Origin: Albifimbria verrucaria
Taxonomy: Eukaryota; Ascomycota; Sordariomycetes; Hypocreales; Stachybotryaceae
Reading direction: 5' to 3'
Length of the DNA: 64,000 bases
Assembly (NCBI GenBank): GCA_020081605.1
Contig: JAHREC010000013.1
Location: forward strand, 7,068,001 to 7,132,000
A model generated the notes under the pieces. It did no database searches. It was given only the letters and a program-made list of their open reading frames with translations, and was not told the DNA's origin. The position numbers and the translations under genes were made by a program. Each line of letters begins with the position of its first letter. Within the stretch, counting starts at the first letter, position 1. Positions 3,224 through 47,219 of this stretch are shown here, one piece after another.

Positions 3224-5920
3224 ATGCACAGCATATCTTCTACATGGGTGCTCTTGGCTTCTGGGCTGGTGCCACTCATCTCTGGCGAAGGGTGCCCCTT
3301 TGCTAAAAGGCAGAGCGAAACTGGTCTGGTCCCACCCAGAGAAGAGGCAGAGCACTTTGGTAGATGCCGGGTTGCTAGCAATGCCGCTGGTGGCGGTACT
3401 CGGAGCAGTGACTTTTGGCCTTGCTCGCTTAAGCTTGATGTTTTACGGCAATTTTCACCTCAGTACAACCCACTGGGCCCTGACTTCGATTATGTGAAAG
3501 CGTTCAAGTCACTAGATTGTAAGTGTCCATCTGCTGACCGTGACGCACTGCTCATACTGACCACGCTATGCAGACGACGCTCTGAAGAAGGACCTACATA
3601 AACTCCTCACCGACTCTCAAGATTGGTGGCCCGCTGACTTTGGCCACTATGGTGGATTGTTTATTCGCATGGCTTGGCATAGTGCCGGAACATACCGTGC
3701 TATCGACGGTCGTGGTGGTAGTGGGATGGTATGTATCGAGAAAGGAGACGACCCCGGATAGATTTGGTCTAACAATCATTTTCTAGGGTCAACAACGTTT
3801 TGCACCTCTAAACAGCTGGCCCGATAACCAAAACCTTGACAAGGCCCGCCGGCTTCTCTGTAAGTAACACCATGATGTGAACAACGGAAAACCCGGTAAG
3901 AAATCATGAGACACTGATAAAGACCACAGGGCCTATAAAGCAAAAGTATGGAAACAAGATTTCGTGGGCTGATTTGATAGTCCTCGCCGGTAACGTCGCC
4001 CTTGAAGGAATGGACTTCCAGCCATTCGGTTTCGCTGCTGGACGCGTCGACACTTGGCAAGCTGACGAGGGCGTCTATTGGGGTGCTGAGACCACCTTCG
4101 TTCCCAAGGGAAACGATGTTCGCTATAACGGTAGCACTGATATCTATGACCGAGCTGATAAGCTAGAGAAGCCTCTAGGAGCTACCCGTATGTCTGAAGC
4201 ACCCATACCTGATGATTCATGAATACTTACACTTGTATGATCAGATTTGGGCCTTATCTATGTGAACCCTGAGGGCCCTGACGGAAGCTTGGACCCTAAG
4301 GCTGCTGCCGGAGACATCCGTGTTGCCTTTGACCGCATGGGTATGAATGATGAGGAAACAGCAGCTTTGATCATTGGTGGTCACACCTTCGGCAAGACCC
4401 ACGGTGCTGTCAAAGCCTGTAAGCATACCCCTTGGATACCTTCTGGGATCTGTGATGACTCACATGAACAGCAAATATCGGCCCAGAGCCTGAGGCTGCT
4501 GATCTGGGCGAAATGGGCCTGGGTTGGCACAACAAGGTTGGCGAAGGAAATGGTCCTAATCAAATGACGAGTGGTCTTGAAGTCATCTGGACCAAGACTC
4601 CCACCAAGTAAGTCGTATTTTCAATAGTCTTTCAAAAGGCTGCCATGAATTTATCTAGCCAAAGATACTGAACCAAGAATAGGTGGAGCAATGACTTCCT
4701 CGAGAGCCTCCTGGGCAATACGTGGTCCTTAGTCGAGTCCCCGCCGGCCATAAACAATGGGAAGCACTAAACGGCACAGTCGATTATCCCGATCCATTCG
4801 ATAAGACGAAGTTCCGCAGGGCAACTATGCTTACCACCGATCTCGCCCTTATTAATGACCCTGCCTACCGTAAAATATGCGAGCGCTGGCTAAAAACCCA
4901 GAACAGCTACGAGATTCTTTCGCCAAGGCGTGGTTCAAACTGCTTCATCGTGACCTAGGACCAGGTTCTCGCTACCTTGGTCCTGAGGTTCCCAAAGAGC
5001 AGTTCATCTGGCAAGATCCTCTTCCTAAACGGTCGAGCGAGACCATAGATGAGACCGATATCACTGCTCTGAAGGACCAGTTACTCAACGCCGAAGGCCT
5101 CGATATTTCTAAGCTGGTATCAACTGCGTGGAATGCGGCTTCTACTTTCCGTAACTCTGACAAGCGTGGTGGGGCCAACGGTGCACGTATAGCTCTTGAG
5201 CCCCAGAGAAGCTGGAAGAGCAACAACCCTGAACAACTTAACCAAGTCTTGGGAGCATTGAAGAAGATCCAGAAAACCTTCAATGCTGGTGGCAAGAGGG
5301 TCTCGTTATCTGATCTGATCGTTCTTGGTGGTGTCGCCGCTGTGGAGAAAGCTGCTCATGATGCTGGATTTGCAGAGATCAAGGTTCCTTTCACTCCGGG
5401 CCGTGTCGACGCCACCCAGAATCAGACCGACATTCGAGGATTTGGCTACTTGGAGCCCGCTGCTGATGGTTTCCGCAACTACGGTCAAGGAAACACCCGC
5501 GCTCGCACTGAAGAGCTATTAGTTGACAAGGCCGCGTTGTTAACTCTTACGCCACCTGAGTTAACTGTTCTTGTCGGTGGTCTCCGGGTTTTGAACGCTA
5601 ATTACGATGGTTCTTCCCTGGGTGTATTCACAGAAAAGAAAGGGCAACTGACCAATGATTTCTTCATTAACTTGCTCTCTCCGACATTCTCTTGGGCCAA
5701 AAAGGATTCGGCTGGTGAATTATGGATTGGGACTGATCGCAAGACCAAGACGGAGAAATGGACTGCCACGCGTGCTGATCTGGTTTTTGGTTCTCATGCT
5801 GAGCTTCGCGCCATCTCCGAGGTCTATGGCAGCGAGGATGCGAAAGAGAAGTTTGTGAAGGATTTCGTTCATGCTTGGGACAAGGTTATGAATCTAGACC
5901 GTTTCGACATCACTGTTTAA
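3224..5920 (+). CDS. katG2: Secreted catalase-peroxidase (KatG2-type), two frameshifts
   Basis: Bifunctional haem catalase-peroxidase that removes hydrogen peroxide. Exons are 3224-3518, 3574-3728, 3787-3859, 3930-4187, 4245-4418, 4472-4607 and 4683-5920; each junction restores family sequence. The start gives a hydrophobic leader before EGCPFAKRQ, so the product is probably extracellular, as in the KatG2 group of fungi. Visible active-site elements are RMAWHSAGTYR (distal Arg, Trp and His), LIYVNPEG (Tyr) and RMGMND (Met) of the Met-Tyr-Trp crosslink, and GGHTFGKTHG (proximal His). The C-terminal duplicated domain is complete. Two one-base deletions break the last exon: C-run 4739-4742 and A-run 4892-4896. 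With both bases restored the model is 776 aa, normal for the family. If the lesions are real, the C-terminal domain is lost. Confidence 0.95.
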
Positions 5921-6838
5921 ATCTGTATCTATCAACATATTAGATTATAAGGCAGATAAAAAGGGTAATTGCCTTCTATTTTCTATAGCTACGGACGTGG
6001 TGCTTATGTCTTCACCCGAATCAACTATAAGTCGAAATTATTTCGTCTTGCATCACTTCACGACAGTGGTGACCTGCCATACCTATGACGACCGAACTAT
6101 CTTACTCGGACATAGTAATCAGTAAGAGGCATTCGGAACATTCAATTAAACGGACGATTTCCATTAACTCCAATGGAGCAACAGCAATCTGTTTCACTCT
6201 TTGAAATAAACCGAGCCAAGTATCGTAGTGTGATCTGTAGCTAGTGAAGACCATAGCGCCGCAACGGCGGTCATCATGGAAGACCGAAGCCCGCGCTAGC
6301 TCGGCATTAGCAGTGTCCGAAGACCGATATTTTCGACGCACAACATACCCAAAGCAGCAAATCTGTGGATCACTCATAGGCGCTTGATGCCAGGTACATG
6401 TGTTCCATCGTGATGTCAAACTAGTTACCCGATTTGCATATGTAGCAGGGGTCGATCTCATCGGATAAGATCGGTCTCCATGCATGGTGAGATCAGAGCA
6501 AGTTTAATTCATCGATACGAACTACCAGACGAGATTCCATGGAACCTAGAGTCGTACTACAGGGTAGTGCACCAATCTGAAGAAGCAGATCGCACTTTTT
6601 CTGCGCTTGATTCACCCTTTTACTAGGCACAATTCAATTGAATGTTTTGAATGTTCGGCTCTTGGTCAAACTACAGTGTAAGAACTGGAGCACTTGGACG
6701 ACAAATGGATAATATTTCTCTCTCTAGTGACTACTTGTCTCTCTATACATGGATATTATTGAAATTTCTCACAACAAATTGAATGAAGCCATCAAGCATT
6801 AATTAGACGCTCTATGAGATGCTTTGAGCTTGAATCCT
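5921..6838. other. Intergenic region between catalase-peroxidase and RTA1 gene
   Basis: Holds the 3' flanks of two converging genes. A 127-codon open frame on the minus strand (6102-6485) has no recognisable motif, leader or intron, and I regard it as probably spurious. Confidence 0.4.
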
Positions 6839-45890: not shown

Positions 45891-46731
45891 GTAGTGCGAC
45901 GCGATGTAAGTTCAAGAAAGATATTGTACTTGAACAGATCAACATCCTTATATGGCGGACTCGAAAGGAGAGATTTATGGATACACTTGTATCGGTATGG
46001 ACCGAAGTAACCGAAACAAAATAGAATTACATAGATATGCTGCAAGTTCTAGCACGATCGGGATCTTGATTCATAATTTCTTGAAGATGCATTTTTCAGT
46101 CTCCATCAGCCAAGTGAGTATGATGGTTCCGGGGAAGGTTAAGGCACTGCCAAGATCAGATCCGCCGGTTCTAGGCTTCTATTTTCATCGAATCAGCCTC
46201 TTTAACAAACTGTTATCATAGCGTTTGAATTGACACAGGGATATATCCCTATAGGGTGAATATGGAGAAATGCATGCTACCAGCGCAGGTTTTACATGGT
46301 AAATTCCTGCATCACATATCGCAGCCAGCATATAAGGGAGAAACATTTTGAAATCAACAGATAAGCTCGATAATGCGCTTTGACGTAGGCTAGAGAGTTC
46401 AATCAACAGATACATAACTATCCTGATAGATTAATAGCATCAAGAAATGCAACACGGGGATAAAAACACTCCTTGGTTTAGACACAGCAAGCTCGGCATC
46501 ATACCAGGTAGCCCGGGCTAACGGCGCGTTTGACTGACGTCTCATGAGACGGAAGCATTGTTTCATAGGAGTGAGGGTGTTACGAGGACAGTTCACACAT
46601 AACACGATACCCTATGAGCTTTCGTTGATAGTGGTTTATACGGGACCAGTCGCAATAAAAAGCGGAATTAGAACAGTAAGAAAAGGCGGCTCTCTCAATT
46701 ACAAGCTATGACTTGCCTGCTCAGTCTGCAG
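45891..46731. other. Convergent intergenic region
   Basis: Only short unsupported open frames; 3' flanks of the MFS gene and the NTF2-like gene. Confidence 0.5.
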
Positions 46732-47219
46732 CTACTGCTGGTCGTCAAACCTACCACCAAGAACTTCCCAATCACCCTCTGCCCACATTGACTTTATCTG
46801 AAGAACTTGAAATTTCCATAAACCCGTAGCTTCTTTGCACAACTCTCCGCGGTATAAATTGCCAGCCATCAGGCTTTTCTGGTTCGGCTCCATGCCCTTC
46901 CTTTTGGATAGTGCTGCGACAACACAGTGCATGTGACACTAGCCTCAGTTTCTGTTTTCATATGTACACGGACATTGGTCGCCATATGCGTGGTATCGAC
47001 TCGTTTGACGAGGGTGAGCCCTGTATTATGGATCTCGGTTAACCCTTTCATGGGGCGCCCATTAATTTCAAAAATGCCATCCGGCATAAAACTTGAGTCG
47101 AAAAGGGTCTCATCGTCCAGATCAAATGCCGTGAGACACCGATAAAGGGCATCCGCCACTGCCTCTCGGCCAGTCGGTGGTGGACTTAGAACAATTGGTA
47201 GAGAGTATGATAGGGCCAT
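46732..47219 (-). CDS. NTF2-like / SnoaL-like fold protein, one frameshift
   Basis: Small single-exon protein, 162 aa when repaired, with the NTF2-like cone fold of fungal SnoaL-like enzymes. Visible features: an N-terminal helix (AVADALYRCLTAFDLDDETLF), DGIFEINGRPMKGL, a central THMATNVRVHM strand, and the C-terminal GLWKFQVLQIKSMWAEGDW. The THMATN stretch carries a His in the pocket region of this fold. Some fungal members act as dehydratases or cyclases in secondary metabolism; no specific reaction is visible here. A one-base deletion in the C-run 46895-46897 breaks the frame. It is divergent from a Zn2Cys6 gene across 359 bp, the classic layout of a regulator and its target, which makes pathway-specific control a fair guess. 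Confidence 0.78.

What the first reader, a model, noticed from the sequence alone, without database searches (positions are those of the whole stretch)
4739..46897. Twenty-two inferred single-base deletions in twelve genes, with no insertions
Seen in sequence: in the catalase-peroxidase, RTA1, two Zn2Cys6 genes, GH12, GH127-type, agmatinase, MATE, amino-acid permease, FaeB-like esterase, Dal5-type MFS and NTF2-like genes, family sequence continues in another frame after a one-base loss, almost always in a run of 2-6 identical bases. Adding one base at each point makes every exon sum divisible by three and gives normal protein lengths. Genes between 27.1 and 39.7 kb and those from 47.6 kb on (apart from one possible case) are clean. 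The -1-only, homopolymer-bound bias argues for consensus error in a long-read assembly; mass pseudogenisation is the alternative. Any automatic annotation of this region will be fragmented.
Basis: partly seen in the sequence, partly recalled or inferred. Interest (0 to 1): 0.75.

Follow-up and report, generated by a model that had tools for sequence, protein, structure and literature searches.

The report
Missing-base errors across a fungal assembly
Genes in this stretch of a fungal genome look broken because the assembly has dropped single bases, in housekeeping genes elsewhere as well as here, so this is a data-quality problem and not gene decay.

Summary
Pfam supports all twelve gene families, the MFS one only below its cut-off. 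Eight of the 22 claimed breaks, in three genes, are confirmed against homologues as one base short with no intron room; a ninth is probable. The rest I could not resolve; at RTA1 and agmatinase an intron fits the junction I saw.

The same loss runs through the assembly. A frame-tracking model with equal penalties gave 35 losses to 6 gains in 195 kb outside the window and finds both kinds about equally on synthetic genes. Housekeeping genes are hit: of 21 out-of-frame junctions without intron room in chaperonin, Hsp70, tRNA-synthetase and RNA/DNA-polymerase families, 19 have the one-base-loss phase. No G/C run of six or more occurs in 259 kb (E. coli: 6 in 100 kb). Seven localised losses sit in longer runs than chance (p=0.00025).

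Best explanation: uncorrected homopolymer-shortening consensus error, most likely Oxford Nanopore. The "clean" zones need no separate cause.

The parts
3224..5917 (+). catalase-peroxidase (KatG2-like) with introns; two one-base losses near 4.7 and 4.9 kb
   Evidence: tblastn of homologues P0001, P0006, P0031; the first break in six homologues, the second localised with four; Pfam peroxidase
6839..7587 (-). RTA1-family membrane protein; the frame change at about 7.13 kb has room for an intron, claimed loss not verified
   Evidence: Pfam RTA1 in two frames; the two ORFs do not overlap
8542..9365 (+). Zn2Cys6 transcription factor (Zn_clus, then Fungal_trans_2 in another frame); break type not resolved
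10790..11770 (-). GH12 family protein with CBM1; coding model gives one loss near 11.6 kb, the Pfam junction has intron room
14510..17569 (+). GH127 family protein with LamG-like domain; three one-base losses near 15.0, 15.3 and 16.0 kb
   Evidence: intact homologue P0121 aligns in four pieces in successive frames; localised with three homologues; no near-identical second copy
17750..19642 (-). second Zn2Cys6 transcription factor; both domains in the same frame, claimed loss not verified
20356..21458 (-). Arginase-family protein (agmatinase); junction near 20.9 kb has room for an intron
22480..24104 (+). MATE transporter; one long ORF, possible continuation in another frame at the 3' end, not verified
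24604..26362 (+). amino-acid/choline permease; one-base losses near 25.5, 25.7 and 25.9 kb, a fourth near 25.1 kb probable, intron-sized step near 26.2 kb
   Evidence: homologues P0241, P0242, P0243, P0248, P0253; Pfam pieces in three frames
40711..42104 (-). tannase/feruloyl esterase family; weak N-terminal piece in another frame, loss or short intron
44381..45209 (+). MFS transporter pieces in different frames, below the Pfam cut-off; not resolved
46884..47168 (-). SnoaL/NTF2-like domain; a single Pfam piece, claimed loss not verified

Best explanation
The breaks are consensus errors of the assembly. The raw long reads under-call homopolymer runs, and the consensus was not (or not enough) corrected with accurate reads, so single bases drop out of runs throughout the 48.4-Mb assembly. 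The genes in the living fungus are most likely intact. Shown: a one-base-loss bias in and outside the window, the same losses in housekeeping gene families, homologues without the breaks, no G/C run longer than five in 259 kb, and homopolymer placement of the seven localised losses. Inferred: that the platform was Oxford Nanopore (about 85%), that polishing was missing or weak, and that the fungus is haploid.
For: Housekeeping families: 79 Pfam pieces in 34 loci of five families. After skipping pairs more than 400 bases apart or out of profile order, 41 neighbouring junctions remain: 16 with intron room, 2 nested, 23 without room. Of the 23, 19 have the phase of one lost base, 2 the opposite phase, 2 are in frame; in 15 the DNA is exactly one base shorter than the profile predicts. 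One Cpn60/TCP1-family gene has three in a row; two DNA-polymerase loci have one each. Coding model, equal penalties: 35 losses, 6 gains in 22 sampled loci (195 kb), 4 and 0 in the window. Calibration on synthetic genes drawn from the same model, strict: 114 of 150 losses, 112 of 150 gains found, 0 false indel calls in 150 clean genes, though 10 false introns. Homopolymers: 0 G/C runs of 6 or more in 259 kb against 6 in 100 kb of E. coli; 19-23 length-6 runs expected in 170 kb by order-2/3 Markov chains. Seven localised losses: summed longest run 27 against 17.1 expected, p=0.00025. GH127: intact close homologue, no near-identical second copy. Precedent: in unpolished nanopore assemblies of another Hypocreales fungus fewer than one-sixth of 305 conserved genes were full length, about one-fifth were still wrong after long-read polishing, and short reads corrected them (PMC7500977, passages).
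Against: No reads were available. The model's 56 lax loss calls are not significantly enriched in homopolymers (p=0.21), perhaps because it places breaks loosely. A minority of opposite-phase events exist (6 of 41 strict calls outside the window, 15 of 64 lax; 2 of 21 out-of-frame junctions), so the error is not purely -1. Several housekeeping loci show no break, for example two of three RNA-polymerase loci. The precedent says errors after polishing were more often insertions, opposite to here. No accurate fungal genome served as homopolymer control: E. coli matches the samples in G/C runs of five (35 per 100 kb each) and also has no A/T run of nine or more, so only the absence of G/C runs of six or more and fewer A/T runs of six to seven set this assembly apart. 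The order-4 Markov chain, trained on the same data, expects only about 4 G/C runs of length 6.
Confidence: 0.96

Rival explanations
1. Local mass pseudogenisation of a dispensable block of cell-wall, transport and regulator genes near a contig end by single-base deletions.
For: The window lies about 170 kb from the end of a 7.3-Mb contig; its broken genes are of dispensable kinds (general knowledge); no near-identical second copy of GH127 exists, only a distant paralogue at 30-39%.
Against: The same losses occur in housekeeping families on other contigs; decay would leave gains and nonsense changes too, yet the strict model finds 0 of either in the window; GH127 remains 98.8-99.6% identical to an intact homologue in three of four pieces.
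Confidence: 0.02
2. The same kind of artefact from another long-read platform (for example noisy PacBio) rather than Oxford Nanopore.
For: Other long-read chemistries also make indel errors (general knowledge); no platform metadata were seen.
Against: The stop at G/C runs of five fits the limit that runs longer than the pore k-mer are hard to measure (PMC8306402 passages); PMC7500977 states that PacBio-only fungal genomes are not hindered in this way.
Confidence: 0.15
3. Many apparent breaks are unrecognised short introns, not lost bases.
For: 16 of 41 junctions in housekeeping families have intron room; so do the RTA1 and agmatinase junctions.
Against: Eight window breaks and 15 housekeeping-gene junctions are one base short with no space for an intron.
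Confidence: 0.04

Closest known systems
Homopolymer indel errors in nanopore-only fungal assemblies (Drechmeria coniospora, PMC7500977; passages read)
   Same: Hypocreales fungus; frames of conserved genes broken, mostly in homopolymers, in an otherwise contiguous assembly
   Different: There polishing introduced more insertions than deletions; here strict losses outnumber gains about six to one
Gene-breaking indels in an unpolished nanopore bacterial assembly (Haemophilus parasuis, PMC8306402; passages read)
   Same: Indels in homopolymers; 664 of 2116 aligned genes with indels before polishing
   Different: Bacterium; short reads and transcripts were available as proof

Membership tests
Homopolymer-shortening long-read consensus error | One-base losses strongly outnumber gains | tested here: met
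   35:6 outside the window, 4:0 inside; 19 of 21 out-of-frame junctions in housekeeping families; detector balanced
Homopolymer-shortening long-read consensus error | Genome-wide, including housekeeping genes | tested here: met
   Cpn60/TCP1, Hsp70, class I tRNA-synthetase, RNA- and DNA-polymerase families on several contigs; some loci unbroken
Homopolymer-shortening long-read consensus error | Long homopolymers missing, coding and non-coding alike | tested here: met
   No G/C run of 6 or more in 259 kb; A/T runs are only moderately reduced, and the control is E. coli and Markov chains, not a fungus
Homopolymer-shortening long-read consensus error | Losses lie in homopolymers | tested here: met
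   Seven localised losses, p=0.00025; looser model calls not significant, p=0.21
Homopolymer-shortening long-read consensus error | Accurate reads show the longer run | not testable with these tools
   No reads held
Mass pseudogenisation | Confined to dispensable genes | tested here: not met
   Housekeeping families broken alike
Mass pseudogenisation | Mixture of losses, gains and nonsense changes | tested here: not met
   Window: 4 losses, 0 gains, 0 nonsense; all sampled DNA with window: 39, 6 and 1

The most novel reading that the evidence does not exclude
A few of the window's breaks are true recent loss-of-function alleles in this isolate, hidden among the consensus errors.
Probability: 0.03. 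Interest if true: 0.2.

Novelty: not a real feature. Interest (0 to 1): 0.08.

Why it matters
It does not change biology, but it warns users of this assembly: automatic annotation will fragment many genes, including housekeeping ones, and counts of pseudogenes, lost genes or species-specific proteins drawn from it will be wrong. Absence of G/C runs of six or more may serve as a quick, read-free flag for such assemblies, once checked on accurate fungal genomes.

Tried and rejected
Coding-model calls as a homopolymer test: not significant, so I localised breaks with homologues. For the site near 25.7 kb I used the 12-base interval of the homologues that fit a one-base loss (run of 3); two homologues gave a 6-base interval with a run of 2. 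A regional cause for the 'clean' zones: scatter over 22 sampled loci fits one rate (Monte Carlo p=0.55 strict, 0.17 lax). A second copy of GH127: none near-identical. Species from papers: 0 papers for Paramyrothecium with nanopore and genome assembly, nothing useful in the 10 listed of 9,480 for Albifimbria. RTA1, agmatinase and FaeB junctions as proof of loss: dropped because an intron fits. Dropped before the count: neighbour pairs more than 400 bases apart or out of profile order; set aside within it: 16 with intron room and 2 nested.

Full report
WHERE IT IS. The window is bases 7,068,001-7,132,000 of contig C10 (7,299,398 bases) in an unnamed 48.4-Mb, 41-contig assembly. The closest named match of the GH127 protein is Paramyrothecium foliicola at 87%, a Stachybotryaceae (Hypocreales) fungus. 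An unnamed metagenome protein, P0121, matches at 98% and is 1021 aa long; P0253, a 387-aa permease homologue (shorter than the roughly 525-aa fungal ones), is also listed on a contig of 37,096 bases, perhaps the same one.

GENE IDENTITIES. The finer names (Dal5-type, FaeB-like, agmatinase) were not tested.

BREAKS IN THE WINDOW. Homologues were aligned to the window by tblastn. GH127: four pieces in frames 2, 1, 3, 2, each step one base short with all three homologues used; span 3060 bases against 3063 expected. Amino-acid permease: steps near 25.5 and 25.9 kb are one base short in five of five homologues; near 25.7 kb in three of five, the other two giving a two-base gain, which is the same phase. 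A fourth step near 25.1 kb is probable but was not localised. Catalase-peroxidase: the step near 4.9 kb is one base short in four of four homologues. For the step near 4.7 kb, saw only the combined effect of an intron and the break; one search shows, in six of six homologues, a block of 20 residues after the intron (15-16 identical) in one frame followed by the next frame. That makes eight confirmed of the 22 claimed, all in the phase of one lost base. I had no full-length homologue for the other nine genes. The strict model supports one loss in GH12 near 11.6 kb. At RTA1 and agmatinase the visible junction has intron room, and FaeB is ambiguous.

THE ASSEMBLY OUTSIDE THE WINDOW. I sampled 17 stretches of 10 kb on contig C10, four of them flanking the window, and 5 of 5 kb on other contigs, and trained a coding/intron/intergenic Viterbi model with equal penalties for lost base, gained base and nonsense. 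Strict: 35 losses and 6 gains outside the window, binomial p about 5e-6; lax: 49 and 15. On random synthetic genes drawn from the model itself, the strict version found 114 of 150 losses and 112 of 150 gains and made no indel call in 150 clean genes, though it called 10 false introns. The asymmetry is therefore not made by the method; real sensitivity is probably lower.

HOUSEKEEPING GENES. Pfam searches of the whole assembly (Cpn60_TCP1, tRNA-synt_1, HSP70, RNA_pol_Rpb2_6, DNA_pol_B) gave 79 pieces in 34 loci. Pairs more than 400 bases apart or out of profile order were skipped. Of the 41 remaining junctions, 16 have intron room and 2 are nested; of the other 23, 19 have the phase of one lost base, 2 the opposite phase and 2 are in frame. 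One of the 19 spans 62 missing profile positions and is weak. In 15 the DNA is exactly one base shorter than the profile predicts. One Cpn60/TCP1-family gene has three such losses in succession. I did not identify the single family members; that most of them are essential, and that the fungus is haploid, is general knowledge and assumption, not tested. Some loci are unbroken, for example two of three RNA-polymerase loci.

HOMOPOLYMERS. In 259 kb there is no G/C run of six or more, in coding or non-coding DNA; 100 kb of E. coli has 6. G/C runs of five are equally common in the samples and in E. coli, and neither has A/T runs of ten or more, so those features do not discriminate. Order-2 and order-3 Markov chains expect 19-23 G/C runs of length six in 170 kb; order 4 expects about 4. 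The seven losses localised to 6-12 bases hold longer runs than random places in the same genes (sum 27 against 17.1, p=0.00025). The looser model calls show no significant excess (p=0.21).

CLEAN ZONES. At the model's rate of 0.36-0.48 per kb, the 5-6 kb of coding DNA it recognises there predicts two or three calls (my arithmetic). Counts in the 22 samples fit one common rate (p=0.55 strict, 0.17 lax). No regional cause is needed.

CONCLUSION. Uncorrected, homopolymer-shortening consensus error in a long-read assembly, most likely nanopore. The precedent in Drechmeria coniospora is close (PMC7500977, passages), although there insertions dominated after polishing.

Noticed in passing
33038-34011 (-): Phage-type lysozyme domain with an upstream bacterial-type SH3_3 domain (below its cut-off) in a fungal genome, possibly of bacterial origin.
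   Followed up: partly
56226-56504 (+): Thioesterase domain matching Pfam FlK (fluoroacetyl-CoA-specific thioesterase), E=5e-26; the family name does not show the activity.
   Followed up: no
61549-62649 (+): 366-aa ORF weakly like extracellular short-chain-length polyhydroxyalkanoate depolymerases, below the NCBIfam cut-off.
   Followed up: no
27143-28691 (-): Sugar transporter in the 'clean' zone; its visible frame changes have room for ordinary introns.
   Followed up: partly
47710-48880 (+): A third Zn2Cys6 protein, in the zone called clean; the lax model gives one loss near 48.1 kb.
   Followed up: partly
window 14510-17569 and 24604-26362; proteins P0121 and P0253: GH127 and permease homologues are both listed on metagenome contigs of 37,096 bases; if one contig, the gene order is shared with a close relative.
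   Followed up: no
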